64,000 nucleotides of DNA from a virus: the IMG/VR virus record IMGVR_UViG_3300032401_000002, positions 86,168 to 150,167 of that record. One strand, 5' to 3'. Below the pieces are notes generated by a model that was not told the origin of the DNA, ran no database searches, and saw only the letters and a list, made by a program, of their open reading frames with translations. The position numbers and the translations under genes are program-made. Below are positions 9,812-64,000 of this stretch, in pieces; the first letter of the stretch is position 1; the number at the start of each line of letters is the position of its first letter.

Positions 9812-9840
9812 AGGCCCATGGAGGGCCTTGAAGGAGGAGG
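9812..9840 (+). promoter_or_regulatory. Leader hairpin and ribosome binding site
   Basis: AGGCCC-ATGGA-GGGCCT (9812-9828) forms a 6-bp stem-loop. It is followed at once by AAGGAGGAGG (9831-9840), which sits 5 bases before the ATG at 9846. This fixes the start at 9846 rather than at the in-frame TTG at 9828, which lies inside the hairpin. Confidence 0.6.
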
Positions 9841-9845
9841 ACGTA

Positions 9846-10919
9846 ATGGATTACAAGCACGCTGTGTTCGTGGGCCGGTTTCAGCCGTTCCACATGGGAC
9901 ACCTAGAGGTCATCAGGCAGGGCCTACGCATTGCGGAGAACGTGATCGTCATCGTTGGATCGTCCAACGCTGCACCGTCTCCCAAGAACCCATTCACCTT
10001 TGAGGAGCGCCGTGGCATGATCATGGACTGCTTCACAGGCGAGATGAAGAATCGCGTCAAGGTGGTCGGGGTTCGCGACTACTACTACAACATCGACGCC
10101 TGGCTCATGGATGTTCAGGGCAAGGTCAACCAGTTCGCCAGAGAGGGCGACTCGATTGCGCTCCTGGGCCAGTTCAAGGACGCTTCATCGTACTACTTGA
10201 AGCTATTCCCGCAGTGGGATCACGAGCCAGTCGAGACTTCCATGATGGATGCCACCAAGGTGCGCCACCATCTCTTCAGCGGAGTCACAGACAGACGCGA
10301 CTGGGAAGGTAAGATCCCAGCCGAACAGCGCCACCCACTCGTAGGGGAGATCGACAAGCTCTTGCCTCTGAGCACCAAGGACTTCCTGAAGGGGTACGTT
10401 CACACCAAGGCGTATGCCGATCAGGTGCGAGAGTTCAAGTACGTTCAGGACTACAAGGCACAGTGGGCTGATGCCCCCTTCCCGCCCATGTTCGTCACCA
10501 CGGATGCGTGTGTCACCACAAGTGGCCACGTTCTCGTGGTCGAGCGCAAGACCAACCCCGGTAAGGGGTTGTTCGCACTACCTGGAGGGTTCCTCAAGCC
10601 GAATGAGTTCGTGCAAGACGGGATGCTCAGGGAACTGCGAGAGGAGACCGGGATCAGGGTTGACAAGCTGATCCTGGCATCCTCAATCGTAGACTCGAAG
10701 GTCTTCGATCACCCTGACCGTTCACTGCGGGGTCGCACGATCTCGCATGGCTTCCACATCAAGCTCAAGGACGGCAACCTGCCCGAAGTCAAAGGCAACG
10801 ACGATGCGGCACGCGCAATCTGGATGTCGCTCTGGGATGTGATCCAGAACGAAGACAAGTTCTTCGAGGATCACGCCCACATCATCAACTACTTCGTAGG
10901 CGCTCAGGGAGAGCGCTGA
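9846..10919 (+). CDS. nadM: Bifunctional NMN adenylyltransferase/Nudix hydrolase
   Basis: This 357-residue two-domain enzyme has an N-terminal nucleotidylyltransferase ([10 protein letters not shown] at 10-19, with the catalytic HxGH). It joins ATP and NMN to make NAD+. The ATP-binding [13 protein letters not shown] follows. The C-terminal half is a Nudix hydrolase with a complete box (G-x5-E-x7-REL-x-EE-x-G, about residues 247-269), which in this family hydrolyses ADP-ribose. The same fusion is known as NadM-Nudix in cyanobacteria, Francisella and several phages. The gene is followed 10 bases later by nadV, so both steps from nicotinamide to NAD+ are encoded together. The start is chosen by the strong ribosome site. 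Confidence 0.92.
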
Positions 10920-10929
10920 AAGGACAATC

Positions 10930-12318
10930 ATGAATGACAACATCATCCTTCTGTCCGACTCCTACAAGGTGTCGCACTGGAAGCAGTACCCGCCGAAGAC
11001 CACCAACGTCTACTCGTACTTCGAGTCTCGCGGGAGCGATGACTTCACCGAGACCACGTTCTTCGGCCTCCAATACATCATCCGCAAGCACCTTGCAGGC
11101 AAGCAGGTAACGGCTGCCAAGATCGACCAGGCTGAGGCCCTCTACGAGGCTCACTTCGGGTCGCCCGATCTCTTCAATCGCGCGGGGTGGGAGCGTATCC
11201 TCAACGAGTACGGGGGTCGATTGCCCGTTCGCATCAAGGCGGTTCCAGAAGGCACCAAGGTGCCCGTTGGCAACGTGCTGATGACCATCGAGAACACTGA
11301 CCCCGAATGCTTCTGGCTCACCAACTTCCTGGAGACACTTCTGTCTCAGGTGTGGTACCCGTCAACGGTTGCCACGGTGTCGGGCCAGGCTCGTAAGCAG
11401 ATCCTCGCGGCCCTGGAGAAGACCGGCGATCCGTCGTTGATCGACTTCAAGCTCCACGACTTCGGCTTCCGGGGCGTGTCCAGCGTCGAGTCGGCTGGGA
11501 TCGGTGGAGCGGCCCATCTACTCAACTTCCTAGGCACGGACACGGTTGCCGCCCTGACGTTCCTCCAGGACTACTACAGCGCAGGAATGGCGGGCTTCAG
11601 CGTCCCGGCTTCGGAGCACTCAACGATGACATCGTGGGGTCGAGAGAACGAGGCAGATGCCTACCGGAACATGATCGAGCAATACGGCGACTGCGGGATC
11701 TACTCCGTAGTGTCGGACTCCTACGATCTGTTCAAGGCCGTTAAGGACATCTGGGGCGACAAGCTCCGAGATGCTGTCCTGGCAGCACCGGGCACTCTGG
11801 TCGTCCGGCCAGACAGTGGCTTCCCGCCGCACATCGTGAACTACACCCTGGAACTGCTGGGTAAGCAGTTCGGCTACACCGTCAATGACAAGGGGTACAA
11901 GGTCTTGAACCCCAAGGTGCGTGTCATCCAGGGTGACGGTCTCAATCTCAAGATGATCGACAACATCCTGAAGACGATTGAGCACGAGAAGTGGAGCGCC
12001 GATAACGTGACCTTCGGGATGGGCGGTGGCCTGCTTCAGCAAGTCAACCGCGACACCATGAGGTTCGCATTCAAGTGCTCTTCAGCCATCGTGGATGGAG
12101 AAGAGCGGGATGTCTTCAAGCAGCCCGCTACCGATCAGGGCAAGGACTCCAAGCGTGGCCGGTTGGCGCTCGTCAAGAGAGACGATGAGTTCTTCACCGT
12201 GTCCGAAGAGGCAGCGAGTCGCTACGACTCGGGTAATCTCCTGGAGACCGTGTTCGAGAACGGCTGGGTCACTAGCGAGTGGAACCTCGACCAGATCCGC
12301 AAGCGTGCGCAGGTATAG
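10930..12318 (+). CDS. nadV: Nicotinamide phosphoribosyltransferase
   Basis: This 462-residue Nampt-family enzyme converts nicotinamide and PRPP to NMN, the rate-limiting salvage step. Hallmarks are SDSYKVSHWKQYPP at the N-terminus, YSYFESRG, HDFGFRGVSS (about 175-185), the active-site histidine in PASEHSTM (about 230), RPDSG (about 293) and a GMGGGLLQ phosphate-binding region. The length is that of the full family. It is co-transcribed with the NMN adenylyltransferase/Nudix gene and ends at two hairpins. Phage Nampt-NMNAT pairs have been shown to rebuild NAD+ after depletion by host defence NADases; that role is likely here but inferred. Confidence 0.93.
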   Translation: MNDNIILLSDSYKVSHWKQYPPKTTNVYSYFESRGSDDFTETTFFGLQYIIRKHLAGKQVTAAKIDQAEALYEAHFGSPDLFNRAGWERILNEYGGRLPVRIKAVPEGTKVPVGNVLMTIENTDPECFWLTNFLETLLSQVWYPSTVATVSGQARKQILAALEKTGDPSLIDFKLHDFGFRGVSSVESAGIGGAAHLLNFLGTDTVAALTFLQDYYSAGMAGFSVPASEHSTMTSWGRENEADAYRNMIEQYGDCGIYSVVSDSYDLFKAVKDIWGDKLRDAVLAAPGTLVVRPDSGFPPHIVNYTLELLGKQFGYTVNDKGYKVLNPKVRVIQGDGLNLKMIDNILKTIEHEKWSADNVTFGMGGGLLQQVNRDTMRFAFKCSSAIVDGEERDVFKQPATDQGKDSKRGRLALVKRDDEFFTVSEEAASRYDSGNLLETVFENGWVTSEWNLDQIRKRAQV

Positions 12319-12412: not shown

Positions 12413-13462
12413 CTAGCTGTAGAGGCCGCGATCTGCGATGTTGGTGACAACACCAGATGCTGCCCACGAGTCAGCCTTGAGGACTCGTGCGAGGCCGCGA
12501 GCGTTCAGGATCATCATCCCGACTAGCTCGTCCATGACCCAGCCCTTGTAGAACTGCTCCACAAGGTGGTTCTCCTCAACGTCGAGGCTGTACATGACCG
12601 GGAAGACGCCGACGTACTCTGGATCAGCGGAGAGGAAGACCTCGCCCTGCGGCACGATGACCGACTTCTGAACCTGGAACTCGCCGAACGACGTGATCTT
12701 CTCGCCTGCGAATACCTTGTCCTTGAAGCTCCAACCCGTGACGTTGATGTCCCAGGTGTAGAGGTCGCGGATGTCCTGCGGGTGAGCAAGGACACGAGAT
12801 GCCTCTAGCTGCTCGATCTCAACCATCGAGACCGCGCTGTAGAAGTCAACCGGCTCAAGCGGGTTCGATGCCCCGATGATGACGGTCTTCTCGCTCGTGT
12901 GGCCACCAGGGCCAGCCGAGATTCCGGTAGCGATACCGCCAGTCGGGGTCTGACCCGCTGCGCCGTAATCGCCGATTGCGCCTTCGAGAAGGAGGATGAG
13001 CTTGTAGTCTTCCTGCTTCTGGATGGCCTGCCGTGACTCGTCCTGCGCGTACTCGACCGCGTTCACTCGGAGGTAGTACAAGTCCTCCTTGCGGATGCGG
13101 GGGAAGGACGCGATGCGGAAGAGGTTCGGGAACGCCTGCTTACCTTCGAAGACCTGTAGCTTGACTTCAGAATCCGTAGCGTTCAGGATGTAAGCCTTAC
13201 CGAGGTCGTCTAGGATGTCATACGGCATGAGCGGGCCGCGCTCCAGGGTGTCCTCTAGGAGGACGTTGCGTACGATACCCTCGTATCGTAGGCGGATCTG
13301 GATCGGGCCGATCATTCCCTGGCCGAGGCGGTGCATACCGCTGGCCTTGTCAGCGAGGATCGTCGCGAGACGCTGCTGCTTCTCCTGCTTGGTCAGCTTC
13401 TTGAGCGAACCGAGCTTCTCGACGTAGTCGTCACTGTGCTTTGCTGTGCGTGCTGTAAGCAT
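12413..13462 (-). CDS. Major capsid protein
   Basis: The 349-residue protein fits an HK97-fold capsid subunit. It has a charged helical N-terminal arm of about 50 residues (KKLTKQEKQQRLATILADKAS), then a beta/alpha core with an E-loop-like region and a C-terminal axial-domain strand set (WVMDELVGMMILNARGLARV). It directly follows, in transcription order, a protease/scaffold gene and a decoration-like gene, the standard head cassette. The N-terminal arm may be trimmed by the protease. The call rests on size, fold features and order. Confidence 0.75.
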   Translation of the reverse strand: MLTARTAKHSDDYVEKLGSLKKLTKQEKQQRLATILADKASGMHRLGQGMIGPIQIRLRYEGIVRNVLLEDTLERGPLMPYDILDDLGKAYILNATDSEVKLQVFEGKQAFPNLFRIASFPRIRKEDLYYLRVNAVEYAQDESRQAIQKQEDYKLILLLEGAIGDYGAAGQTPTGGIATGISAGPGGHTSEKTVIIGASNPLEPVDFYSAVSMVEIEQLEASRVLAHPQDIRDLYTWDINVTGWSFKDKVFAGEKITSFGEFQVQKSVIVPQGEVFLSADPEYVGVFPVMYSLDVEENHLVEQFYKGWVMDELVGMMILNARGLARVLKADSWAASGVVTNIADRGLYS

Positions 13463-14135: not shown

Positions 14136-16832
14136 CTAGAAGATTGAGTCCTCGAACTCGTCTTCAACTGCGTGTGCGTCGATGTCGAACGAAGCAACCG
14201 GGCGGAAGCTCGGTACTCGTCCTGCTGTCGGTGCCTTCGTGCTCGTCGCCTTGCGGAGACCAGCGGTCTTGACCTTGGCGTACGCCTCGATCTGGGCGTC
14301 AAGCGCCTGAACCGGGGTGTCCTCTAGCTCGGACGCGCGGTCGAACTTCGCGTCAGAATCGAGGATGCCTAGCTCGACCTCAGTCTCTGCGACCTTGAGG
14401 GCCTTGTAGACCTGAGCCTTGGCGTTCGCTACTGCGACACCAATCGGGCCACCGACCTCGTTGGAGTTGTCGCCGCCAACAGGGTTAGCACCCTTGAGGC
14501 TACGGAACTCTTCACTGGAGTCGGTCTCGGTGGGGCCACCAACCTCTTCCTTCAGCGATCCGTCAAGCTGGACTCGCGTCGGGTCGTGATCGGGGAAGCC
14601 GTGGCCGGGAGAATCCCAGACGCCACTATCGTCAGCCGTCTTCTCCGTTGCGGAGACGGTGCTGAGCAACTCACCAGCATCACTCGTCACGGCATCCTGC
14701 TGACCAAGGCTATCGCCCTCGCCACCACTCCAGGTGTCCGTGTGGGGCGCGGTGAAGTCGCCCGTGTCCTTCTCTACGTTCTCGTTGTCGATGCCGCTCA
14801 GCGGATCTCCAGTGACAGCGCCCACGCCTTCTACGTCTACACGCTTGTCAGCCTGGACACCCTCACCATTAGCAGAGGCACCGTCAGCGATCTTTGTCTG
14901 TGCGGTCATGTTGTCCTTTCGGGTTTTACTTTCGACTGGAGCCTTCGAGTCCGTGATAACCTTCTTACCAATCGGCTTGTCTGACAACTGTCGTGTAACA
15001 GGAAGGATGGGCCGTTCCTGTGTCTTAATCCGTCCACCTTGGGCGGAAGTCTTCTCAACCTTTACAGTGGCCGTCTCTGCTACCTTTGATGTGGCAGGCA
15101 TAGCGCCGCCCGGCATGGGCTTGGGGCTACTCGGGTCGTTCGGGTTGGTCTGAATATCGTTGGGAGCGCCAGGCTGCTGGCCCTGTGCAGCCTGCTCAGC
15201 GTCCTGCTGATGCATCTGCTCATCGACCTCCTTGGCCTTCTCCAGGTCGGGATTGTCAAAGCCCTCGGGCGGCTCTTCGTAGTTGCAGACTTCGCAGACG
15301 CCGTCTTCCATATCGCTACCGCAGATCGGGCAAACCTGATCCTGACGAAGTGTGTCTACCTGATCGGGAGCAACCGTCATATCTGACTGCGGCTCGGGGT
15401 TACGGTCGGCTGTTACACCACGGCCACGCAAGATCTGCCGAATCTCATTTGCGTTCATGCCATACGAACGTGCGATGGCTTCCAAAGACTGGCCCTGTCG
15501 GTGAGCCGCCACAACGTCGTCATTCATGTTGGCCGTCTTGGCTGTTGAGCGATCCTCAAGACCAATCTGTTGTCCGGCTGCATCCCACTCTGCATCTGCT
15601 GCCTTCATAGCTGCATTGATTTCTGTCTGCTGCTCGGGGGAGAGCATGTTCCAGACGGACACGACCGAACCAGTCGAGCCTTCGCCCAGGAAGTCATTGC
15701 GATCTCCGGGGGTCTCAACGGTCGGGGTGCCATGCTCACCATAAGGGTCATGTCGATCTCCACCCATGGGAACAGCCTGCTTGTTCCGATCAAGATGGTC
15801 AACAAGCTCCCAGAGCTTCTGGTATGTGCCAGTGCTGATTCCACTGAGAGTCTCTGCGACCTCGTCGGGTGTGTAGTAGTCAAGACCTTCGGCGGGCGGG
15901 ATTGCTCCCTGTGCTCCGACGCCAGGTGCAACACCAGCGATGTTGTAGACCGGGACTAGATCTTCCTGCTGTGCTACCTGGACTCCGTACGGGGTCTGGA
16001 CGTGGTACTGAAGGATGCCACCATTGGCGGTGTAGTCCACGATCTTGCCGCTCTGGCCAGAGCCGGGGCCTCCACCGATCTGAACCTCTTCGCCAACGCG
16101 GAACTGCTGCGCGCCTTCTACCTGGACGGCAGACACGCGAGCGGCCTTCTTGATATCGCGCACGAGCGCGGTCTCATCGGCAGGATCGAAGACAAAGCTG
16201 ATCTCGAAGAAACCAATGTCGTAGCAGTCCTCATAGGACTTCTTGGCCACCTTCTGCCCACTCGGTGTGTGGAAGTCAAAGTATGCACCCTTGGACTGGA
16301 CGTGCTTGCAATATTGCTCGGGCGAGCGGGCTTCGTTACCGCAGTGTGAGCACTTGCTCAACTCTACGTTCGCACCCATGGACACGCCATCGATGTCGCC
16401 ATCTACGATAGCCTTGGCGAGCTTGGGGAACTTCTTGGCATCCACTTCGAGCAGAAGCTCGATCCAGGTTGCCGGAAGGTGATTGGCGGGAGCGGCCGAG
16501 TAGTACGGGTCGAGACTTGCTGTCTTCTCGTCCTCGATGTGCAGGGCTGCGTCCACGATGACACCACGCGCCCGCTTGGGGTCGCTGTTGTGGTGGTCTA
16601 CGAAGATCGGCTTGCCGATGAAGGTGCGCCAAGACTTCTCAAGCTCAGTGGCGGGCCATCCATCGTGGTTCTTGTTGACGCGCGATGAGATCGCTCGCAC
16701 GCGCACATAGACGTATCCGTCTTCAGTGCGATAGTCGTCGTACTCAGCGAACTTGGACAACGAAGCAGAGCGCTCCTTAGAGGGAGCGCTCTTGACTTCG
16801 AGGACTTCTAGCTTCGCGTACTTCTGGAACAC
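14136..16832 (-). CDS. Capsid maturation protease fused to scaffold
   Basis: An 898-residue protein. The N-terminal 220 residues resemble phage prohead proteases. A conserved His region (PIFVDHHNSD, H80/H81) and a Ser in GDIDGVSMGANVE (S151) are candidate catalytic residues, and a Cys-rich insertion (CSHCGN, C175) follows. The rest is disordered and acidic like a scaffold, with an HTH-like segment (about 439-475), a zinc ribbon (CPICG at 501, CEVC at 513) and several K-T-A sites (103, 432, 731 and near the end). The start is a GTG at 16832. The protease should cleave scaffold and capsid arms during head maturation. The fusion is unusually long. Confidence 0.7.
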   Translation of the reverse strand: MFQKYAKLEVLEVKSAPSKERSASLSKFAEYDDYRTEDGYVYVRVRAISSRVNKNHDGWPATELEKSWRTFIGKPIFVDHHNSDPKRARGVIVDAALHIEDEKTASLDPYYSAAPANHLPATWIELLLEVDAKKFPKLAKAIVDGDIDGVSMGANVELSKCSHCGNEARSPEQYCKHVQSKGAYFDFHTPSGQKVAKKSYEDCYDIGFFEISFVFDPADETALVRDIKKAARVSAVQVEGAQQFRVGEEVQIGGGPGSGQSGKIVDYTANGGILQYHVQTPYGVQVAQQEDLVPVYNIAGVAPGVGAQGAIPPAEGLDYYTPDEVAETLSGISTGTYQKLWELVDHLDRNKQAVPMGGDRHDPYGEHGTPTVETPGDRNDFLGEGSTGSVVSVWNMLSPEQQTEINAAMKAADAEWDAAGQQIGLEDRSTAKTANMNDDVVAAHRQGQSLEAIARSYGMNANEIRQILRGRGVTADRNPEPQSDMTVAPDQVDTLRQDQVCPICGSDMEDGVCEVCNYEEPPEGFDNPDLEKAKEVDEQMHQQDAEQAAQGQQPGAPNDIQTNPNDPSSPKPMPGGAMPATSKVAETATVKVEKTSAQGGRIKTQERPILPVTRQLSDKPIGKKVITDSKAPVESKTRKDNMTAQTKIADGASANGEGVQADKRVDVEGVGAVTGDPLSGIDNENVEKDTGDFTAPHTDTWSGGEGDSLGQQDAVTSDAGELLSTVSATEKTADDSGVWDSPGHGFPDHDPTRVQLDGSLKEEVGGPTETDSSEEFRSLKGANPVGGDNSNEVGGPIGVAVANAKAQVYKALKVAETEVELGILDSDAKFDRASELEDTPVQALDAQIEAYAKVKTAGLRKATSTKAPTAGRVPSFRPVASFDIDAHAVEDEFEDSIF

Positions 16833-22797: not shown

Positions 22798-22826
22798 GGT
22801 CACCCTTTAGGGCCTAGCTATGAGAG

Positions 22827-40881: not shown

Positions 40882-43854
40882 TTATGAACGCTCGTTGAGT
40901 GAAGTCATAAACTCGTCATAAGTCTGGACTTGACCGGCGAAGTGAGGCTCCCAATAGGATGTCTTGCTGATCTTCGCGCCCTTGTTCCAGCCCCTCACCT
41001 TGTTCTTGAGCCAGGGGTTGTTCCAGTGGTAGGCATCGATGGGCTTGCCGCTCGCGCGCAAGGGAGCAACCATCTGGTTGAACAACCCTTGCTCTCTGTG
41101 GTCGGGGTGTACGTACACTGTCCCCAACATGTTCCACCCGTTGGGGTCTTCCACGTACGTCATCGAACCAACTGGCTTGTCGCCATGGAGGGCAACAACG
41201 CCCTGACCCTGTCGTCCCTGTCGGTCGAGGAAGGTATCCTCAAGCTCGCCAGTTTGCTCCATCTTGTTGGTCTCGACATTCTTCTTCCAACCTGCTCGGA
41301 ATCTGGGGTGCTCTTTGCCGTCTTCATCGATCCAGGTGTTGTTCTCCAGATCGATGGGCACGATCCGATAAGGGCTAGCAGCTTGCTTGATAAAGGCTTG
41401 TTCGCACGCGGCCTTGATAGCCGGGATGTCAAGATCAGGCCGTCGCGTGTTCAACTCGATCCCACCTTCTGTGTACCTGCGGCCCTTGATCATTCCCCGC
41501 TTGATCCACTCGTCCTCGCCCAACCCCTCTTTCTCGTGCATGTCGCTGATGATGTCGAAGTGATTGGGGCCGAACCTGAACTGTTGCATCATGGGGTCGT
41601 AGACGAAGGCCGTTGACTCTTTGGGCCGAGGTACCCAGTCGTAGTCATCGTCCATGGTGGCTACCTTGCTGAGCGCACCCGGAATCTTAACCTCGGCCTG
41701 CTCGGGTGGGCCACTCGTCAAGTCTTCGTAGGTGGGTAGACCACGGTTCTCCTGGTTGGGGTCTGGGAGATCCTGAGGCAATGCCAGTCCGTTCGTGTAG
41801 ACTAGGTTGTACAAGTAGCTGATGAACTTGTAGGCATCGCCATACACGGCGTCGGCTTCCTGAGCCTCCAGGTCACTCTTCGACTCGTACCACTCGTCTT
41901 CGTAGTTCTCCCGCGCTAGCTCAGGGTCAAACTCGCCGTCTTCATCGAACGCCAAAGGCGTGTCATGCGAGTGGTTGTTCTTGAAGAACTGCTCCTCGAC
42001 TTCGCCGTCACTGATCTCCATGTAGTCCGACAATTGGAAAGCCCAGTCATTCAACTCTTGCTCGGCCTTCTCGATGTCCCTCATCGCGATATCCTTGGCC
42101 CTCTTGGCGTACTCGGGATCGGATCGCTTCTCGGCCCAGTCTTCGGTGCAGAGAGCCGTGTAGCATGCGTGGGCAGCACCCCGCCAGTCGTTCGTGTTCC
42201 ACTTGTTGCGGTCGTAGTTGTCGGCCAACGAGTTCAGGTAGTCCTGAAGGATCTCATCCCAATCGCTGATGTCGGGGTGCTCGCGCTCGGACGTGACGCC
42301 GTACTCGTCCTCGCCACCATGGCGGTACATCTCGTGGTTGTCGCGGAACGTGTTGTCGTACCACTCGTCAAGCTCTTGTGCGGTCTTCATGGATTCGTAG
42401 TCCCACTGCTGACGGCCTTGTTGGTCGAAGGGGTTCATGTAGTCTTCCGACCTCTTGAACTTCCAGCCCTTCTCCTTGAGCGAGTTGAGCCACTCTTTCA
42501 CCATACGCTGGTACTCGGGCTTCGGGGTCTTGTTCGAGTTGCCCATCATCTGCACAACCTCGAACGGATCTAGATCCTCCGACGTAGCTTTGCGTCCTTC
42601 TTCCCTAGACGAGTTGCGGACAACGAGATCCTCGGGCTTGTGAGTGTCAGGGTGAACCCTCTCGTCACCCGCGTCACGGTTGAACACCATGCCGTGATCC
42701 CCCATAGGCTCGGCAGCGCTGAACGGATGCTGTGACACCGTCTGAATCTCGATGGTAACGTGAGGGATGTTCTTACTGTCTCGCAGGCTATAGATGATCG
42801 TGTCGCCGCGCTCGACCTGGTAGTGGTAGCCTCCAACGCAGTGCCCCATCTCGTCGCCCTCGAACTGAAGCTGCTCGGGAGTCGTCAGCTTCTGGATCGT
42901 ATACCCGTTCCCGAAGTCGTACACCACAGCGCCTGCCGACAATGACTCGCGGTTGTCGCGCTTCCACTCCATCAGCCATTCCTCGAACTCCTTGAAGTTC
43001 AACTTGGCGATATCGAAGTTCTGCGGGATCTTGTTCTCTTGGCGAAGCTGGTTGAGGATCTTGCCGCCTTCCCCAACAACGTCTACCTCGTGGTCGAAGT
43101 TCAACTGCCCTCGACCAAGCTCAGGAAGGTAGCCATAAGCGCACTGGCTGGTGTAGTCGTCCTTCATGTGCTTGACGAACCAGGGCCACAGCTTGTAAGA
43201 CTCGGGATGGTTGGATTCCAGATCCATGATTGCCTTTGCCATCGCGGGATACAACTGGGCCAGGTTGGCTTCCTCGTTCTTCTTCAGGAGTTGACCAACA
43301 GCCTTCTTGGCCTGCTGTGACGGCGGCTCGTCTACCTTGGGATCGTAGGTGGGGCCTTGTAGGGGTCTGCGGGGTGTCCAACCTTCAGGAGCTTCGAGCC
43401 TGCCGCTGTCGGTATCCCACAACGAGTCATACACGGCAGCCAGCGCCTGGAACGCATGCTCTTGCGAATGGTAGTCACGCATCAGCATGTTGTAGGCAGC
43501 CAGGTAGCCTCGCTCGCGCGTGGTCAGCGTGTACTTGTCCTGCCACTCTGTTGCCGCTTGAGCCGCGTCACCGATTGAACTACGCTCGCCAGGAGTCTTG
43601 GAGCGCTGATACAGTCCATACACGTCCATCATCTTCTGGATGTCAGGACGAGGAGGCTTGTGACCTCCGTCAATGGGATTCTCTGGATCTGCGTTGTACC
43701 CGAAGATCGACTCTAGCTGCTCGCGGGCAAGCTCTTGCACAGAAGCTCCCAGACGCTCCATCGACGCCAATCTGACCCAGGCGTCCAGGTCATGCGTCGA
43801 TACGTCTGAGAATGGCTCCTGAGAGCGTACAAGGGGATTCCAGAGGTCAGTCAC
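40882..43854 (-). CDS. Large PcfJ-like and GNAT-domain protein
   Basis: A 990-residue protein. A helical N-terminal region (to about 250) leads to a PcfJ-like domain (about 250-380). Its core is DEMGHCVGGYHYQVERGD, followed by IYSLRD and PHVTIEIQ. A long acidic middle carries MKTAQ (about 489) and SKVATM linkers. A C-terminal GNAT acetyltransferase-like domain (about 880-955) has LGTVYVHPDHREQGLFNQMV, the acetyl-CoA loop pattern. It shares both domain types with 58074-64000 in the opposite order. The start GTG at 43854 follows CCGATAAAG. It is probably a virion or injected protein; acceptor substrates are unknown. Confidence 0.65.
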   Translation of the reverse strand: MTDLWNPLVRSQEPFSDVSTHDLDAWVRLASMERLGASVQELAREQLESIFGYNADPENPIDGGHKPPRPDIQKMMDVYGLYQRSKTPGERSSIGDAAQAATEWQDKYTLTTRERGYLAAYNMLMRDYHSQEHAFQALAAVYDSLWDTDSGRLEAPEGWTPRRPLQGPTYDPKVDEPPSQQAKKAVGQLLKKNEEANLAQLYPAMAKAIMDLESNHPESYKLWPWFVKHMKDDYTSQCAYGYLPELGRGQLNFDHEVDVVGEGGKILNQLRQENKIPQNFDIAKLNFKEFEEWLMEWKRDNRESLSAGAVVYDFGNGYTIQKLTTPEQLQFEGDEMGHCVGGYHYQVERGDTIIYSLRDSKNIPHVTIEIQTVSQHPFSAAEPMGDHGMVFNRDAGDERVHPDTHKPEDLVVRNSSREEGRKATSEDLDPFEVVQMMGNSNKTPKPEYQRMVKEWLNSLKEKGWKFKRSEDYMNPFDQQGRQQWDYESMKTAQELDEWYDNTFRDNHEMYRHGGEDEYGVTSEREHPDISDWDEILQDYLNSLADNYDRNKWNTNDWRGAAHACYTALCTEDWAEKRSDPEYAKRAKDIAMRDIEKAEQELNDWAFQLSDYMEISDGEVEEQFFKNNHSHDTPLAFDEDGEFDPELARENYEDEWYESKSDLEAQEADAVYGDAYKFISYLYNLVYTNGLALPQDLPDPNQENRGLPTYEDLTSGPPEQAEVKIPGALSKVATMDDDYDWVPRPKESTAFVYDPMMQQFRFGPNHFDIISDMHEKEGLGEDEWIKRGMIKGRRYTEGGIELNTRRPDLDIPAIKAACEQAFIKQAASPYRIVPIDLENNTWIDEDGKEHPRFRAGWKKNVETNKMEQTGELEDTFLDRQGRQGQGVVALHGDKPVGSMTYVEDPNGWNMLGTVYVHPDHREQGLFNQMVAPLRASGKPIDAYHWNNPWLKNKVRGWNKGAKISKTSYWEPHFAGQVQTYDEFMTSLNERS

Positions 43855-52456: not shown

Positions 52457-54685
52457 CTAGACCCGCATGTACGTACCCTTGGCGATGCGAACCATGGGGT
52501 GGCCCTTGAGGTCGAAGATCATCTTGGCCGCACCTACGACGGTTCCACCGCCAGAGCCGTTCAAGCCAACAACATCAACGAACTGTCCAGTCGAGGTCGT
52601 TGGTACACCGAAGACTGGTGCTGCGGGGAGTCCAGTTACCTGAACGTTGACATTGCCGGTCGTGATGTTGACGGAGCCGAAGACATACGTGCTGCTCAGG
52701 CCCGTCAGATTGGTCGTCGTGTTGGTGGTAACTGCACCGAACGTCGGGGTCGGAGTCAAGCCAGTTACGTTGACGTTCTGGCTGAACGTAGCTATCGGCG
52801 TACCGAACAAAGGCGTGCCGGTCAGGGCGGTAACGTTGACGGTTCTCTGGATATAGATTGACCCAAACGACGCGGCAGAGTTCAAGCCCGTAACGTTGAC
52901 TGCCTGAGCACCAGTGGTGGATACTCCACCGAACGCGGCAGCCGAGTTCAAGCCAGTTATGTTGACCGTACGCTGGATGTAGATTGTGCCGAACGCTGGT
53001 GTCGAGCTTAGCCCAGTTACGTTGACCGTACGATTGGCGGTTGGTGTCCCGAACGCTGCCGTTGAGGTCAACCCAGTGACGTTGACTGTTGTTCGGAACG
53101 TAACCGTGCCGAACTGGGCCGTTGAAGTCAGTCCACCTACGTTGCCGCTGGGGTGAGTCGTTCCGAACGTAGCAGCGGAGTTCAGGCCAGTGATGTTGAC
53201 GGTAGTCTTTAATGTGACCGTACCGAACTGGGCGGTCGAGGTTAGGCCACCAACGTTTCCGCTTGGGTGAGTGGTTCCGAAGGCTGCTGCACTGTTGAGA
53301 CCCGTAACGTTGACGGTGCGGTTAATCGACAAGGTGCCGAACGATGCAGCGCTGTTGAGTCCGGTGACATTGACCGTACGGTTGATTGTCGGCGTACCGA
53401 ATGCCGCTGCCGATCCCAGTCCGGTGACATTGACTGTCCGATTGATCTGGAGCGTACCGAACGATGCTGCCGAACCCAACCCGGTAACGTTGACCGTAGT
53501 CTTGAAGGTAACGGTACCGAACGAAGCCGTGGAGGTAAGGCCCTGTACGTTAGCGCTGGGATGAGCCGTTCCGAAGGATGCAGCAGAACCCAATCCTGTA
53601 ACGTTGACTGTCGTCTTGAACGTGACCGTACCGAATGCCGCAGTGGAGGTTAGCCCTGTGATGTTCACCGTGCGGTTGAACGTGGGGGTTCCGAACGCCG
53701 CTGCGGAGCCTAGCCCCGTGACGTTGACAGTACGATTGATCTTTACGGTTCCGAACGAAGCCGCAGATCCCAAGCCCGTTACGTTAACATTCACGCCTGG
53801 CTGTGTGGCTGTAACGGTGCCGAAGGCGGCAGCGCTTCCAAGACCAGTGATGTTGACGGTCGTGTTGGTCTTGAGCGTACCGAACGAGGCCGCAGATCCT
53901 AGACCTGTAACGGGCACGGTCTGTTTAACGCTGAGCGTGCCGAATGATCCCGAAGGTGGAGCGATCTCAATGTACGCTCCGATTGTCCATGCTAAGGATG
54001 CCGCGTCCTGGGGGAATGGATTGGACGGAGATGCATCCAGGTCGTTGGACTTGAAGAAGCCACCACCAGGGGGAGCGCCAGCATTCGACAGCGCGATCTT
54101 GTCGGAAATAGCACCTGCGCCATTGACGTTCTGGAACCCAATCCACAACTTGCCGCTCGTGGGGGATGACACATCGACATCTGCACTGACCCAGTCTGGT
54201 GCGCCGCCTGCGGCCATCTGTACTGACTTGAGTAGCGTACCAGGAGAGATGGTACCGCCATCGTCATCGTACACACTGATGTAGAGATCGGGGCCATTCG
54301 ACTCCAAGTAGGCCCATAGCTTCTTTATTCTCGATCCGGCAACGACACTTACCGTGTACCCGTTAGTCCAGATATCCTTCTCTGCGATAGCGAAGTTCGT
54401 GAAGCCGGTTATGTCGGTCGTACCAAGGAGAGACGATGCTCCAAGCGCAACAATGTTGACAGTTCTCTTGATCGTGACCGTGCCAAACGACGCAGCAGAT
54501 CCTAGACCAACAAGTTGGACGTTGACGTTGCCCGTCGTAAGTGTGACGGTACCAAAGGATGCGGCCGAACCTAGGCCGGTTACATTGACGTTCTGCGGGA
54601 ACGTCGTGACTTGGCCCCGAAGACGAACGTCGTTCGGATTGGCCTCGCCGCTATAGAGGTTTACATCGGATGGCAGCAGGGGCAT
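52457..54685 (-). CDS. Giant GLGSAA(A/S)FGT-repeat protein
   Basis: The 742-residue protein is built from about 26-27 imperfect repeats of 19-20 residues with the core V-N-V-T-G-L-G/N-S-A-A-S/A-F-G-T. They are interrupted by an insertion of about 165 residues (near 80-245: WTNGYTVSVVAGSRIKKLWA onward) of beta-sandwich type. It is the longer relative of 3794-4951. The units share amino acids but use different codons, so the repeats are old or under selection at protein level. It is probably a long fibre or tape-like virion component. Confidence 0.7.
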   Translation of the reverse strand: MPLLPSDVNLYSGEANPNDVRLRGQVTTFPQNVNVTGLGSAASFGTVTLTTGNVNVQLVGLGSAASFGTVTIKRTVNIVALGASSLLGTTDITGFTNFAIAEKDIWTNGYTVSVVAGSRIKKLWAYLESNGPDLYISVYDDDGGTISPGTLLKSVQMAAGGAPDWVSADVDVSSPTSGKLWIGFQNVNGAGAISDKIALSNAGAPPGGGFFKSNDLDASPSNPFPQDAASLAWTIGAYIEIAPPSGSFGTLSVKQTVPVTGLGSAASFGTLKTNTTVNITGLGSAAAFGTVTATQPGVNVNVTGLGSAASFGTVKINRTVNVTGLGSAAAFGTPTFNRTVNITGLTSTAAFGTVTFKTTVNVTGLGSAASFGTAHPSANVQGLTSTASFGTVTFKTTVNVTGLGSAASFGTLQINRTVNVTGLGSAAAFGTPTINRTVNVTGLNSAASFGTLSINRTVNVTGLNSAAAFGTTHPSGNVGGLTSTAQFGTVTLKTTVNITGLNSAATFGTTHPSGNVGGLTSTAQFGTVTFRTTVNVTGLTSTAAFGTPTANRTVNVTGLSSTPAFGTIYIQRTVNITGLNSAAAFGGVSTTGAQAVNVTGLNSAASFGSIYIQRTVNVTALTGTPLFGTPIATFSQNVNVTGLTPTPTFGAVTTNTTTNLTGLSSTYVFGSVNITTGNVNVQVTGLPAAPVFGVPTTSTGQFVDVVGLNGSGGGTVVGAAKMIFDLKGHPMVRIAKGTYMRV

Positions 54686-58073: not shown

Positions 58074-61000
58074 CTAGGACTTGACCCATGCTCCATTGAC
58101 ATACGAGAACGACGCTGTCTGGCTTGCAACCTCGACGGGCTTGTCGATCTCGCCGCCCCATGCGTCGAAGTTCTGATCGTCCTTGTCGTACTCCACCAAC
58201 GTGACGTACATAGCCAGAGGATCGACGCCTGCCTGCACGAGGTACTCGTTGTTCTGGTCGTTCTCGTACCTGTCGGGGTTCATCTCGAACCCAGCCTGAT
58301 CTGCGATAGCTTCGTAGATCACTGTAGCCATCCAGTAGCGGTCAGAGTTGTAGCCTTCGTTCTCGGCTTCTGAGTCTTGCTCGAACGTAGCGTAGTATTG
58401 AGCGTTGGATCGGTCAGTCGTCCACAGTCCACGAGTGAACTGGTCAGCCAACTGGGCCGGGTCTTCCAGCACGTTCCATGGTGCTACTCGGGATGCTCCT
58501 CGATACACTGTCGTGGCGCTAGCCGTCTTGACAGAGCCTTGAGCGAACTGCTTGTCCCAGTCTTCAGGCGATGTATCCCAGCCATCATCCATGTCCATGT
58601 CGGCTTGTTCGGCGATGCTGTCGGGATCATGGCCCTTGGTGAGCGGCATACCAACGGCAGCTTCAAGCCTCTCGATGTGCTCGGGTGTGACATTGGGTCG
58701 CATCCAGATCGCATGCGTGTTGCCCTGAATGGCACCATCAAGGAACTGACCAGGGTACTTGAATGGATGCTGGTTGTACCAGTCCAGGATAGGAGCTTCT
58801 AGGTGGCGGTGGAAGTGACCAGGCGTTCCCATGTGCAGGATGTCATTGCCTCGGTCGTACTTGTAAGGCGTGCGGTTCTCCCACATGTCGAAGTCCTGGC
58901 CCATCTCGCCCTCGAAGTTCACTCGGTTGCTGGGAGTGTGGTCAACGATGTGGGTTGCCGTCCTCACGCGGGCAGCCTTCCAGCCTTCTTCTGCGTCATC
59001 CTGCTTGTCGAGTCGGTTCCACTCCATGCGGTTGGTGAGGGAGTCATCTTGATGGTCTTCATCGTCGTACTCGAAGTCGTCAGTGTCGATCCAGGGCTGG
59101 CGCTCCATCCAGTCTTCAAGAGCATCGCGCTCCCTGTCGTAGTATTCGTCCTCGTCATCGTCTTCACCCGGCCCACTCCACTCGGGGTGATCCTTGTAGA
59201 AGTCGTCCATGTACTCGCCGTCTTCGTCCATGATGCGGAAGTTGCCGTGCTCGATCTTGGACGGGTGGATCGGCCCGTAGTGCATTACGGGGTACCCATA
59301 CTCCTCGCTCAAGAACTTGGCTGTCTCTTCCCTCAAGTCGTTGGGCATTTGGCGCAATACGTTGACCGAGTGCTGGTGATGTCCACCACGCTCGTACCCG
59401 TACGCCTGCGCTCCTCCCAGGTCATCCTGGTCGTACCCAGGGTTCTCCTTCTCGTACGCATCGATGTGAGGCTGGATGCGATCAACGAGATCACTCTGCG
59501 TCGAAGACTCGCCATCCCTGTGCCACTCGGCAGCTTCCTGCTGCTCGGGGTAACGTCCCATGTATTGGTCGTAGAAGTGCTCGTGGTCTGGGCCGAGGTT
59601 GTTCTTGTCGATCCCCTTGACGCGCAGGATGCGAGGGTCAGTCCAATGGCCCTGCATGCGCTGGTACTGAAGGGCCTTCTGTGCGTTGGGCCACAGATAC
59701 ACAGCGTTCTCTTCGATAGGTAGGTTCCACTTGCGCTCGGTGCCTTGCTCTGATCCCACCAACCCCTGCTTGGCGATATCGGGGATGCGGTCGGCCTCGG
59801 TGACGTGGTACCAAGTGTTGTCGTCGTAGGGCATGGAGATTGCGGTCATAGCCAGCTTGAGTTCGGGCTTAGCCAAGCTCACGAGATCTTCGGCCCTGCG
59901 GTTCTCGATGTCAGAGTCATGGGGATACCACTGGACGTGGTACGTTCCATCGTCGTACCAGTTGTAGCCCTCGACATGGCCCGTCATGCCTTCACGTCCT
60001 GACCCAGGTGCGCCGGTAACAGCTTCGCCCTTGACGAAGGACTGCTGGCCACCACCTTCAAGCACGACGGGGTTGAATGCTGCCGTGTGCTCAGCCAACG
60101 TGATAGCGGGATCGATGCCTGCCTCGATCATGTCACGCTGGACTGACTTGCGGTGCTCGTTCATGTCACCCAATGCATATCCCTTGTAGGGTAGGATCTG
60201 ACCTTCAGCGATCTCGCCCGTGATGCCTGAGTACGGTAGGCGCTTGCGGATCGAGTCATGGTGCTTGCCCTGCTCGCCGAACTGGGTCTTGTCTACCTCG
60301 GGATAGTGGATGTACGGGATGCGGTTCTGCCAGTAAGCGTTCATGCGGTCGGTGCGGAGTGGCTGCTCCTTCTGCTCATTCAAGATCTCCTCCCACAAGT
60401 CAGTGCGCCCTGCGTGCTTGGCCGTCTTGCTCACCCACCCGTGCAGTGCGTTCTCAGTGTGATTGATGCCTGCCTGCTGCGCCCACTGTCGAACCATCTC
60501 GGTGTGCTCGGGCAGGGGTGCCTTGTTGCGTGGGCCAAGCACCTGGCCCAGGTTGCCCGTACCATCTGGCTCGTGCCACACGCCATCCTCGTACGTCTTC
60601 CAGATGCCTCGCCCCACCTGGAAGGATGCGAGAGGTAGGTTGGCGGGGTCACGCAGCGAGTAGTGCTCTGAGCCATTGATCGGGATGTGCTCGCCATCCT
60701 TGAAGATCGACCCATTCTGCTGCCAACAGTTGCGCATCATCACGCCTTCACGGTTCTTGTCTGCCATCGTCTTGAGTTGGCGAATCGTGTGACCATCTGG
60801 GAACTGATGCACGATCTCTGACTGATCAGGGCCTTGCGTTAGGTCGATCTCGTCGTTGGCACGCAGTCGCTGGTTGTACGTCTCGCCCGCTAGCTTGGTC
60901 TGAGCGTTGCGGTAGTAGTCGTTGCCTGCTTCGCCCCATGGCATGGTGTCGGGCCACTGCGTCTTGGCCATCTCTTCCACCGTGTTGTCTGATGGGATAA

Positions 61001-64000
61001 CCTCGTCGTTGCGTCCGATCTCGTACTCTGTTCGGCATCGAGGACATGTGGCCCCGCCTTCGAACAAGATCTCTAGCTGGCTGCCACACAACGGACACTC
61101 GGGGTACACATCACGATCTCCAACAGTGTCGAAGTTCCAGTCGGTTGAGTGTCCTGCCGTGGATAGCTTACCCTGAATTGCGATCCGAGATGGATCAATG
61201 TGGTCTAAGGTAGCCGCTGTCTGCGTCCACGAAATCGCTTCGTCAACGATTGTGGGATCACTTACAAGATCGTGCAGAGACACAGCGCCCTCATCCGACT
61301 CGATATACCCTGGGCCTTCCTCCCACCAAATCTCATCACCGTCGATTTGTCCACCTGTATCCACCAGACTCGGCAAGTCGGCCATGAGCTTCAGGCCATT
61401 GACGTTGACCTGGAGGATGGTGTAGTCTAGACGATTGAACGCCTGATTCTCCTTGGCCAACTCCCACGGCGAATATGCTAGGTAGACGGGTCGTCCACCA
61501 TAGAAGGCGTCAGCCCACGTACCAGCGTCCGTGAAGCCACCTTCTGCGCCTGGGGTCAAGCCCTGCTGCATGATGGTGGCAACGTTCTTGGTCTCGGTCA
61601 CATGATACATGGTCTCACCTTGTGCCATCTTCAACAGCTTGGTCACGACAGGATTGGGTGCTGGGATGGGCCTTGGGTTCTGAGCTTCAGCGTTGTAGTA
61701 GTCTGATTCGGTGTTGGGCTTGCCGAGGGGCTGGCCAACCACCGGCATCTGGAAGTGAGGCAAGCGCTCGATCTGCTCGTACCAGTTGGGGCCATGGACG
61801 TAGCCTGAGCCTTCGCCGTTGCCTCGATCCTGCACCCACTGTTGCCTACCAGCGAATGTGTTCTCGGGGTACTGATGACCACCAGGGATGTGGGGGTAGT
61901 TCAAGTTGTTGTGGTTCAAGTCGTTGCCAGGTGCGTTGTGTACCGGCAGCGTGGTCTCCAACGCAGTCTTTTCGTATGTCGCCACCCAGTCAAGCAGGTT
62001 GTCCACTCGGACGAACTGTTGCTCTCCTTGATCGAAGAGGGCCTGCTGCGGGTCGGCTGAGTCCTGCTGCTTGCGGCCAGCCTTCCATAACTGGATGCGG
62101 TCGTCCAACAATTCGAGGAGAGCTTGACCTTCTCGTCCATGTACTTGCATGAGATGGTGGGCCGTGGTGTACAACACTTGGGCTAGATGTCGAGCGTCCA
62201 CGCCTTTGTTGGCTGCTGTGATGGCTTGGTCGATGATCGGCTCGATGGCTTCGTTGTTGTTGTGCCCGGCGTTGTAGTTCTGATACCCCTGGATGTGGTT
62301 CGGCGTCTGGTACATCCAGACACTAGGGTTGCCGTTGGCGTCGTGCTCGACCTCGCCTTCTTCGTCTGTATGTGCCCACGGGTCACGATCCATCACGGCT
62401 TCGTGGTAGTCCTGCGCTCCCGCTAGCGTGTTGGGGTAGACCGTCTGGGCAGGATGGTAGTCAACGTCGGGGTCGTTGTACCAGGCTTCTTCGTCAAAGC
62501 CTTCGCCTACGTCGTACCCTGCTTTGTCCAAGTGCTCGTACCACTCATCGACCATAGCCTTGTACTCGGGCTTGATGTTGCCGTTCGACTTGCCCTGCTC
62601 TTGTACGACCTTGAACTCCTTGTCGTCGTAGATGGTGCGGTCGCCATTGGCTATGGGGCCAGAAGCCATGGGGTTAACATCGCCTTCAACTTCGATGGTG
62701 ACATGCGGATGGCCCTTGGGGTCACGGAGTGAGAAGATGGTTGAGTTGCCGTTGCTCACAGTGTCGCAGTACCCACCAACGCAGTGACCCATCAGTTCGC
62801 CCTCTAGCGCTAGATCCTTGGGGCCGACTTTGTCGATGTGCCAACCATCATCGAACGTGTGGACAACTGTTGAGTCAACCCACCCGCCGCCGTTCTCTTC
62901 GCGGTGCTGCTTGTCCATGTCGTAGACCCACTGCTCAAGCTGGGCGAAGTCGAACTGCTTGTTCATGTAGTCTGGGAGTGGCTTGTTGTGCTCGTTGGCC
63001 CAGACCATCCACTTGGTGGCTTGGTCGAGGATGTCCTCAGCGTGTCGTCGGTTGTTCTTGGTGATGCCTGGTCGATCTTCGCGCTGGCCAGGATACGCCT
63101 CGATGAAGTTGGGGTCGATGGGCTTGAGTCCACGCTTGTACTCCCTAACTGCCCACGGCATCAGCTTGAAGCCCTCGTCCGGGATGCCGTCGAGGATGAT
63201 CTTCAAGCGCTTCCAGTCAGTCATGATGGCGTTGCCACCATCTGAGTAGTCGTACGGCCCAGCGTTGTTGGGCGGTGGCATCTTGGTCGGGCCACCTTCA
63301 TCAGTGTTCTTCAGCTTGAGGATGTCCTCGCGGTTCAATAGCTGCTCTCGTGTCTTGGTTGCCAATGCTGACACGTCCGCTGCTAGTCGTGGCCAGAAGC
63401 CCCGCATAACACGTCGCTTGTGATGTGTTAAGCGCTGATTGGCTAGATAATCCATCACATGTGATGTCTTATGGTCACCCATCATCTCGACGTGCTGAGC
63501 ATACGACTCAGGGTCGTGCTTCTGTGCCCACTCTCTGCCAGCGTCTGACTGGTTGTCCCAATCGTGCTCGGGGTTGTGGCCCTGATCTCGAAGGTGATTG
63601 AACATGGCATCAGCCACACCACGCCGACGCCATCGAGGGTTGACCTCGACCTGCGTGACCAGGCCATCGGAGTCGATGAACATGTGCCCAACTTCTGAGT
63701 TGCTGAATCCAGTGAAGGCGTAAGCCTCGATCAGTGTTGACCCCTCGCCATCTTGATCGCTTGTGACCTCGAACGTCAGTTGAGGCAGATCACCACGCTG
63801 ACCCATGCCCAGCTTTGTAGACAAACTATGAGGAGTTGTCGAAACTGCACCCCCCTTTGACTTTGCAGTGTTACGAGCTTCCTTCTTGGCTGCGATCAAC
63901 TCACCATCAGTCCACTGCTGTGCCAACTCCAACGTGAACGTGCCACCGTTGGCCTCGACCGCCTTAGCGATCTCCTTGTGCTCAAGCTCGGCCAACCCGT
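58074..64000 (-). CDS. Giant multidomain protein with GNAT, PcfJ-like and ADP-ribosyltransferase-like segments, 5' end outside
   Basis: At least 1973 residues. In order: GNAT-like (about 75-145, RRRGVADAMFNHL), PcfJ-like 1 (about 250-490, LMGHCVGGYC at 401), EKTAL linker (676), ADP-ribosyltransferase-like A (about 795-940: MYHVTETKNVATIMQQGL, VYLAYS), zinc ribbon (967-987), degenerate PcfJ-like 2 (about 1050-1170), ART-like B (about 1394-1580: WYHVTEADRIPDI, VYLWPNAQKAL), acidic stretch, and ART-like C (about 1829-1930: VYRGAS, LWTTDRSNAQYYA, EYLV). Segments are separated by K-T-A sites (676, 1190, 1823). The frame is open at the edge; the TTG at 63995 is only a possible start. Confidence 0.65.
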   Translation of the reverse strand, partial: GLAELEHKEIAKAVEANGGTFTLELAQQWTDGELIAAKKEARNTAKSKGGAVSTTPHSLSTKLGMGQRGDLPQLTFEVTSDQDGEGSTLIEAYAFTGFSNSEVGHMFIDSDGLVTQVEVNPRWRRRGVADAMFNHLRDQGHNPEHDWDNQSDAGREWAQKHDPESYAQHVEMMGDHKTSHVMDYLANQRLTHHKRRVMRGFWPRLAADVSALATKTREQLLNREDILKLKNTDEGGPTKMPPPNNAGPYDYSDGGNAIMTDWKRLKIILDGIPDEGFKLMPWAVREYKRGLKPIDPNFIEAYPGQREDRPGITKNNRRHAEDILDQATKWMVWANEHNKPLPDYMNKQFDFAQLEQWVYDMDKQHREENGGGWVDSTVVHTFDDGWHIDKVGPKDLALEGELMGHCVGGYCDTVSNGNSTIFSLRDPKGHPHVTIEVEGDVNPMASGPIANGDRTIYDDKEFKVVQEQGKSNGNIKPEYKAMVDEWYEHLDKAGYDVGEGFDEEAWYNDPDVDYHPAQTVYPNTLAGAQDYHEAVMDRDPWAHTDEEGEVEHDANGNPSVWMYQTPNHIQGYQNYNAGHNNNEAIEPIIDQAITAANKGVDARHLAQVLYTTAHHLMQVHGREGQALLELLDDRIQLWKAGRKQQDSADPQQALFDQGEQQFVRVDNLLDWVATYEKTALETTLPVHNAPGNDLNHNNLNYPHIPGGHQYPENTFAGRQQWVQDRGNGEGSGYVHGPNWYEQIERLPHFQMPVVGQPLGKPNTESDYYNAEAQNPRPIPAPNPVVTKLLKMAQGETMYHVTETKNVATIMQQGLTPGAEGGFTDAGTWADAFYGGRPVYLAYSPWELAKENQAFNRLDYTILQVNVNGLKLMADLPSLVDTGGQIDGDEIWWEEGPGYIESDEGAVSLHDLVSDPTIVDEAISWTQTAATLDHIDPSRIAIQGKLSTAGHSTDWNFDTVGDRDVYPECPLCGSQLEILFEGGATCPRCRTEYEIGRNDEVIPSDNTVEEMAKTQWPDTMPWGEAGNDYYRNAQTKLAGETYNQRLRANDEIDLTQGPDQSEIVHQFPDGHTIRQLKTMADKNREGVMMRNCWQQNGSIFKDGEHIPINGSEHYSLRDPANLPLASFQVGRGIWKTYEDGVWHEPDGTGNLGQVLGPRNKAPLPEHTEMVRQWAQQAGINHTENALHGWVSKTAKHAGRTDLWEEILNEQKEQPLRTDRMNAYWQNRIPYIHYPEVDKTQFGEQGKHHDSIRKRLPYSGITGEIAEGQILPYKGYALGDMNEHRKSVQRDMIEAGIDPAITLAEHTAAFNPVVLEGGGQQSFVKGEAVTGAPGSGREGMTGHVEGYNWYDDGTYHVQWYPHDSDIENRRAEDLVSLAKPELKLAMTAISMPYDDNTWYHVTEADRIPDIAKQGLVGSEQGTERKWNLPIEENAVYLWPNAQKALQYQRMQGHWTDPRILRVKGIDKNNLGPDHEHFYDQYMGRYPEQQEAAEWHRDGESSTQSDLVDRIQPHIDAYEKENPGYDQDDLGGAQAYGYERGGHHQHSVNVLRQMPNDLREETAKFLSEEYGYPVMHYGPIHPSKIEHGNFRIMDEDGEYMDDFYKDHPEWSGPGEDDDEDEYYDRERDALEDWMERQPWIDTDDFEYDDEDHQDDSLTNRMEWNRLDKQDDAEEGWKAARVRTATHIVDHTPSNRVNFEGEMGQDFDMWENRTPYKYDRGNDILHMGTPGHFHRHLEAPILDWYNQHPFKYPGQFLDGAIQGNTHAIWMRPNVTPEHIERLEAAVGMPLTKGHDPDSIAEQADMDMDDGWDTSPEDWDKQFAQGSVKTASATTVYRGASRVAPWNVLEDPAQLADQFTRGLWTTDRSNAQYYATFEQDSEAENEGYNSDRYWMATVIYEAIADQAGFEMNPDRYENDQNNEYLVQAGVDPLAMYVTLVEYDKDDQNFDAWGGEIDKPVEVASQTASFSYVNGAWVKS

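What the first reader, a model, noticed from the sequence alone, without database searches (positions are those of the whole stretch)
58074..64000. Three ADP-ribosyltransferase-like segments in one giant protein
Two segments begin Y-H-V-T-E and have a G-L turn, V-Y-L and a later P-S-R/K-I strand, resembling KptA/phage-type ADP-ribosyltransferase folds. A third near the C-terminus has V-Y-R-G, W-T-T-D and E-Y-L. T4 injects Alt ADP-ribosyltransferases, so a delivered effector is plausible. The phage also encodes NAD+ salvage enzymes (9846-12318), which would supply their substrate.
Basis: inference. Interest (0 to 1): 0.7.

Follow-up and report, generated by a model that had tools for sequence, protein, structure and literature searches.

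The report
Phage giant protein carrying ADP-ribosyltransferases
This phage encodes a giant many-part protein in which two parts have the fold of enzymes that transfer ADP-ribose from NAD+ (a third proposed part is not supported); it is probably packed into the virus head, cut up there and injected into the bacterium, a theme already known from other phages.

Summary
The window holds one open frame of at least 1974 aa (58074-63998, minus strand), cut off at its N-terminus by the contig end. A profile built only from relatives' domains ranks this protein first among 7045 ORFs, at exactly those two places; A's predicted structure matches DarT1 and Tpt1/KptA. B's structure prediction failed, so B rests on sequence. 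Segment C has the quoted letters, but no homologue and no detectable similarity to any ART: unsupported. The protein also has one certain PcfJ domain, a degenerate second copy and a zinc ribbon. The phage is a distant Myrna/Bxz1-like myovirus whose relatives carry similar mosaic giants among late genes: phage polyvalent proteins, a described class in which ARTs are the commonest modifying enzymes. New here: [KR]xA motifs are selectively enriched in inner-virion and giant proteins, sit just before ART domains, and recur at the capsid-protein N-terminus. The head protease may therefore cut the giants into separate effectors. The NAD+ salvage genes are real but not tied to the ARTs. Packaging, cleavage, injection and catalysis remain inferred.

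The parts
58074..63998 (-). Giant multidomain ORF, at least 1974 aa, N-terminus cut off by the contig end
63549..63818 (-). Weak GNAT-acetyltransferase-like stretch (residues ~61-150)
   Evidence: R-R-R-G motif read by eye; Pfam Acetyltransf_7 only E=0.19; tentative
62508..63188 (-). PcfJ-like domain 1 (residues ~271-497)
   Evidence: Pfam PF14284 E=3.9e-8, above cut-off, residues 394-439; homologues in relatives' giants
61623..61631 (-). K-M-A (790-792), candidate head-protease site just before ART-A
   Evidence: inference
61161..61622 (-). ART domain A (residues ~793-946); H799 in strand 1, Y839 in strand 2
61017..61103 (-). Zinc ribbon (residues 966-994)
   Evidence: Cys pattern; weak Pfam zinc-ribbon matches
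60888..60896 (-). K-L-A (1035-1037), candidate protease site before PcfJ-like domain 2
   Evidence: inference
60468..60881 (-). PcfJ-like domain 2, degenerate (residues ~1040-1177)
   Evidence: Matches in relatives' giants down to E=6.7e-25
60420..60428 (-). K-T-A (1191-1193), candidate protease site
   Evidence: inference
59850..59858 (-). K-L-A (1381-1383), candidate protease site just before ART-B
   Evidence: inference
59223..59831 (-). ART domain B (residues ~1390-1592); H1398, Y1434
   Evidence: AlphaFold2 inconclusive
58521..58529 (-). K-T-A (1824-1826), candidate protease site before segment C
   Evidence: inference
58134..58520 (-). Segment C (residues ~1827-1955), ART claim not supported
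14136..16832 (-). Head maturation protease fused to a long tail; the proposed cutter
   Evidence: phrog_18299 head maturation protease E=5e-21; 9 K[TLMVI]A versus 1.4 expected
12413..13462 (-). Major capsid protein; N-terminal R-T-A motif
   Evidence: 53-56% identical to Mycobacterium cluster C capsid proteins; R-x-[AV] in 45 of 48 distinct relatives
40882..43854 (-). Second large protein of the same kind: PcfJ + GNAT
   Evidence: Pfam
9828..10919 (+). NMN adenylyltransferase-Nudix (NAD+ salvage, not required by the model)
10930..12318 (+). Nicotinamide phosphoribosyltransferase (NAMPT)

Best explanation
A phage polyvalent protein of a Myrna/Bxz1-like myovirus. It is a late-expressed mosaic of effector domains, including two KptA/DarT-fold ADP-ribosyltransferases, that is packed into the prohead, cut at [KR]-x-A linkers by the head maturation protease into separate pieces, and injected with the DNA. 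The ART pieces then use NAD+ to ADP-ribosylate host macromolecules (protein or nucleic acid) at the start of infection. Supported by computation: the architecture, the ART relationship and fold of A, the ART relationship of B, late-gene context, and the motif enrichment. Inferred: packaging, cleavage, injection, catalysis and target.
For: ART identity: relatives-only profile finds A and B; profile of A plus relatives hits only Tpt1/KptA in the PDB, best E=0.0011; AlphaFold2 of A has pTM 0.64, and Foldseek gives DarT1 2.8e-4, Tpt1 3.9e-4, then KptA and other ARTs, and viral KptA and DarT. H and Y are conserved in A, B and nearly all relatives used. Context: PcfJ-type giants of 1200-3200 aa with varied enzyme domains, several with ARTs, in capsid-protein relatives; the ORF lies upstream of minor-tail genes on the same strand. 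Processing: K-x-A ranks 1 of 360 spaced pairs in inner/giant proteins (61 versus 34.6), not in tail or replication proteins; it is high again in relatives' giants and Myrna gp96+gp97; [KR]xA lies within 35 aa upstream of 10 of 14 ART starts versus 2.3 expected; R-x-[AV] precedes a conserved block in 45 of 48 distinct capsid N-termini. Precedent: PMC5512222, PMC9503650.
Against: No virion proteomics. No peptidase inside the visible protein, and the N-terminus is missing. Sequence links to KptA are marginal taken singly. The model of A is of moderate confidence (pLDDT 66.6; TM-scores about 0.4). The [KR]xA motif was first noticed in this protein, and it could be an interaction or linker motif instead of a cleavage site. 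B's fold prediction failed.
Confidence: 0.55

Rival explanations
1. The ART domains belong to a virion-delivered RNA-repair or RNA-end-processing kit: KptA-like domains act on RNA ends left by host tRNA-cutting defences, alongside 2H phosphoesterase, cREC and CCA-adding domains.
For: Closest PDB sequences are all RNA 2'-phosphotransferases. In relatives an ART is fused to a CCA-adding enzyme (L105 1534 aa; L207); another giant has Acb1/2H plus cREC. The window encodes a 2H RNA-ligase-like domain at 32383-34380. PMC9503650 describes KptA-2H repair.
Against: The N-terminal lobe of Tpt1/KptA, with its essential Arg-His (own knowledge), is absent: matches start about residue 79-92 of Tpt1. B lacks the Arg before V-Y-L. 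The fold also matches DarT.
Confidence: 0.2
2. Late or structural protein made and used inside the producing cell (assembly, lysis timing, superinfection exclusion), not injected; its ART domains act late.
For: Late-gene neighbourhood next to tail genes; large size.
Against: Precedent for packaging (PMC5512222, PMC9503650); shares the [KR]xA enrichment with the head protease and other inner proteins, not with tail proteins.
Confidence: 0.15
3. The ART domains are catalytically dead, kept as NAD+/ADP-ribose-binding or protein-binding modules, for instance sponges for ADP-ribose-based immune signals.
For: The third catalytic residue is not identified; A and B differ at the position before the last strand.
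Against: H and Y are kept in A, B and nearly all relatives used despite about 20-25% identity.
Confidence: 0.08

Closest known systems
Phage polyvalent proteins (PMC5512222)
   Same: Giant multidomain proteins among late virion genes, ART domains in one or more copies, fast domain shuffling
   Different: No zincin or assemblin-like peptidase seen in the visible part; PcfJ is not named in that paper; candidate processing by a separate head protease at [KR]xA
Tpt1/KptA RNA 2'-phosphotransferase
   Same: Catalytic-lobe fold and motif L/M-Y-H-x-T...G-L...V-Y/H-L
   Different: Lacks the N-terminal winged-helix lobe with its essential Arg-His; embedded in a mosaic protein
DarT1 DNA ADP-ribosyltransferase
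   Same: Best Foldseek match of A (E=2.8e-4)
   Different: No sequence similarity found; no adjacent DarG-type antitoxin identified
T4 Alt
   Same: Proposed delivery in the head and early action
   Different: Alt is an R-S-E ART; A and B have H...Y; no sequence relation found
phrog_13493 (unknown function)
   Same: Matches A (E=0.0014) and ART domains in four relatives
   Different: Unannotated family

Membership tests
ADP-ribosyltransferase superfamily (domain A) | ART fold | tested here: met
   AlphaFold2 + Foldseek: DarT1, Tpt1, KptA and other ARTs
ADP-ribosyltransferase superfamily (domain A) | Catalytic His in strand 1 and Tyr in strand 2 | tested here: met
   H799 and Y839 lie in strands 1 and 2 of the model and are conserved in the alignment
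ADP-ribosyltransferase superfamily (domain B) | ART fold | tested here: inconclusive
   Profile hit and shuffle tests positive; AlphaFold2 pLDDT 39.8
ADP-ribosyltransferase superfamily (segment C) | Homology or fold | tested here: inconclusive
   No homologue or similarity found; not folded
Tox-ART-HYD2 clade of polyvalent ARTs | H in strand 1, Y in strand 2, D in strand 5 | tested here: inconclusive
   H and Y met for A; A has Asp932/Asp935 at the end of strand 5, B and relatives differ there
Tpt1/KptA | N-terminal winged-helix lobe with Arg-His | tested here: not met
   All matches begin in the C-terminal lobe
T4 Alt / R-S-E ARTs | R-S-E triad | tested here: not met
   A and B carry H...Y; only C has an R-TT-E pattern, without homology
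Phage polyvalent proteins | Several distinct effector domains in one polypeptide | tested here: met
   PcfJ x2 (one degenerate), ART x2, zinc ribbon
Phage polyvalent proteins | Encoded among late virion genes | tested here: met
   Same strand as, and upstream of, minor-tail genes, the head protease and the capsid gene
Phage polyvalent proteins | Processing peptidase within the protein (common, not universal) | tested here: inconclusive
   None found in the visible part; N-terminus missing
Phage polyvalent proteins | Packaged and injected | not testable with these tools
   Needs virion proteomics

The most novel reading that the evidence does not exclude
Myrna/Bxz1-like phages build their injected effectors as polyproteins that the head maturation protease cuts at a shared code, [KR]-x-A, the same one that trims the capsid protein, so each virion delivers a set of separate enzymes including KptA-fold ARTs without their RNA-binding lobe.
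Probability: 0.4. Interest if true: 0.65.

Novelty: new member of a known kind. Interest (0 to 1): 0.45.

Why it matters
It places ART-bearing polyvalent proteins in a large, little-studied group of actinobacterial myoviruses related to cultured phages such as Myrna. It also gives a directly testable cleavage code ([KR]xA) by which injected effectors could be recognised in any phage of the group: one mass-spectrometry run on Myrna virions would test it. If right, anonymous giant proteins become readable as sets of injected enzymes.

Tried and rejected
Direct searches of IMG/VR with the whole protein and with A and C, and with an A + Acinetobacter-phage pair, gave nothing: the patterns need near-identity. 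Pfam and NCBIfam give no ART call for A, B or C; PF22531 and PF01885 do not ring in the window phage. AlphaFold2 of B failed (pLDDT 39.8), so no fold search was made with it; several alignments for B were misaligned. A PADLOC PD-T4-6 hit to C (E=0.001) covers 55 residues of a 496-position model and was not taken as evidence of an ART. A supposed SH3-like module shared with the head protease was not supported. NAD+ salvage as an obligate partner of the ARTs: rejected.

Full report
What is there. The window is the last 64 kb of a 150,167-bp linear virus contig. One open frame runs from 63998 to 58074 on the minus strand, 1974 codons with no stop, and leaves the contig at its 5' end, so the protein is longer than we see. 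Pfam recognises one domain with certainty, PcfJ (residues 394-439, E=3.9e-8). Comparison with relatives shows a second, degenerate PcfJ-like copy (about 1040-1177). A zinc ribbon (966-994) and a GNAT-like stretch (about 61-150) are weaker.

Which phage. The capsid protein (12413-13462) is 53-56% identical to those of Mycobacterium phages Myrna, Phabba and Bxz1-like phages, and IMG/VR holds at least 80 related loci. One relative, G012 (152 kb), lies inside a genome contig of Candidatus Solirubrobacter pratensis, so at least part of this group infects soil Actinomycetota.

Relatives carry the same kind of protein. Searching 42 capsid-related records with the giant found PcfJ matches inside ORFs of up to 3220 aa. 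Their contents vary widely: CCA-adding enzyme, Acb1/2H, cREC, ParB, YunG, GNAT, inteins. Several contain modules that begin L-Y-H-G-T or L-Y-H-V-T followed by G-L-x-P and H-V-Y-L. Four relatives and the window phage match the same unannotated family, phrog_13493, in large ORFs.

Are A and B ARTs? A profile made from seven relatives' modules, with no window sequence, gives the window protein as best non-member of 7045 ORFs (E=5.6e-11), with two separate domain hits at 792-867 and 1393-1501. The profile of A plus relatives, searched against the PDB, returns seven sequences, all Tpt1/KptA (best E=0.0011). AlphaFold2 of A (seven-row alignment) gives pLDDT 66.6 and pTM 0.64, with a confident core. 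Foldseek against the PDB gives DarT1 with NAD+ (E=2.8e-4, probability 1.00), Tpt1 (3.9e-4), many KptA, then other bacterial ARTs and PARPs. Against viral models it gives a KptA of phage PaBG, a DarT and ART-PolyVal-like proteins. A is therefore an ART fold with good confidence. B rests on sequence: its own prediction failed (pLDDT 39.8). H799/Y839 in A and H1398/Y1434 in B are the expected strand-1 His and strand-2 Tyr. The third catalytic residue was not fixed.

Is C an ART? The quoted letters are there, but nothing else is. C shows no similarity to A, B, KptA or the relatives' modules (z <= 1.7) and has no homologue in five searches. It could still be a lone, fast-evolving ART; it cannot be claimed.

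How it might be delivered. The protein is encoded among late genes, on the strand of the tail, capsid and head-protease genes. [quoted passage not shown]). About 44% of phage ARTs lie in contexts that suggest head packaging, and ARTs are over-represented in myoviruses (PMC9503650). Packaging itself is not shown here.

A candidate cutting code. K-M-A, K-L-A and K-T-A precede A, B and C by 3-12 residues. The motif was noticed here first, so it was tested elsewhere. In an unbiased scan of all spaced residue pairs, K-x-A ranks 1 of 360 in the phage's inner/giant proteins (61 versus 34.6 expected), with no excess at neighbouring spacings or in tail or replication proteins. In relatives' giants K-x-A ranks 3 and R-x-A 8 of 391. 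In Myrna gp96+gp97, which lie between portal and capsid genes, R-x-A ranks 2 and K-x-A 4 of 177, with no excess in other Myrna proteins. [KR]xA lies within 35 residues upstream of 10 of 14 ART starts, 2.3 expected. In the capsid protein an R-x-[AV] precedes a conserved block after a short variable N-terminus in 45 of 48 distinct sequences, as a trimmed propeptide would. The phage has a head maturation protease (14136-16832; phrog_18299 E=5e-21), itself rich in the motif. I infer that this protease cuts at [KR]xA and frees the effector domains in the head. A binding-motif role is not excluded.

NAD+ genes. 9828-12318 (plus strand) encode NMNAT-Nudix and NAMPT. NAMPT was found in only 3 of 20 related records, and in 2 of the 5 that have phrog_13493 ART domains. 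Phages use such enzymes to rebuild NAD+ after NADase defences (PMC9503650), which is enough to explain them.

What the ARTs act on is open. Loss of the Tpt1 N-terminal lobe speaks against plain 2'-phosphate removal. Fusion to CCA-adding enzymes in relatives keeps RNA in play. Protein or DNA modification is equally possible.

Verdict: a new member of a known kind (phage polyvalent proteins), with two supported ARTs, one unsupported, and a testable processing code as the most interesting by-product.

Noticed in passing
L209 4240-11378 (Myrna gp96, gp97): Large proteins between portal and capsid genes of phage Myrna are enriched in [KR]xA; gp97 is annotated as tape measure but lies where the head protease lies in the window phage and its N-terminus resembles it.
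   Followed up: partly
L108 5460-10133 (relative G017): A Hint/LAGLIDADG intein-like insert lies exactly between M-G-H and C-V-G-G-Y of the PcfJ core motif, hinting that this motif is functionally critical.
   Followed up: no
L105 10930-15531 and L207 5300-9484: Giants in which a KptA-like ART is directly followed by a CCA-adding enzyme.
   Followed up: partly
L110 5263-9432: One protein with an Acb1/2H anti-CBASS-like domain, a cREC domain, an ART-like Y-Y-H module and a PcfJ-like domain.
   Followed up: no
window 19315-22803: 1162-aa protein with a lone PEP-utilising swivelling domain and several zinc ribbons, rich in K-x-A.
   Followed up: no
window 32383-34380: Late-strand protein with a 2'-5' RNA ligase/2H domain, related in kind to anti-CBASS Acb1 found in relatives.
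   Followed up: no
window 9828-12318: NMNAT-Nudix plus NAMPT pair on the opposite strand inside the late region, a probable NAD+ reconstitution pathway.
   Followed up: yes
window 52457-54685: Minor-tail protein made of many repeats of the type V-N-V-T-G-L-G-S-A-A-S-F-G-T (phrog_13352).
   Followed up: no
L208 (NZ_AUEK01000007.1): A 152-kb relative lies within a 603-kb contig of Candidatus Solirubrobacter pratensis, so it may be a prophage of that host.
   Followed up: no
L009 3980-4357: Acinetobacter phage vB_AbaM_3098 has a small stand-alone relative of ART-A (33% identity, E=1e-4).
   Followed up: partly
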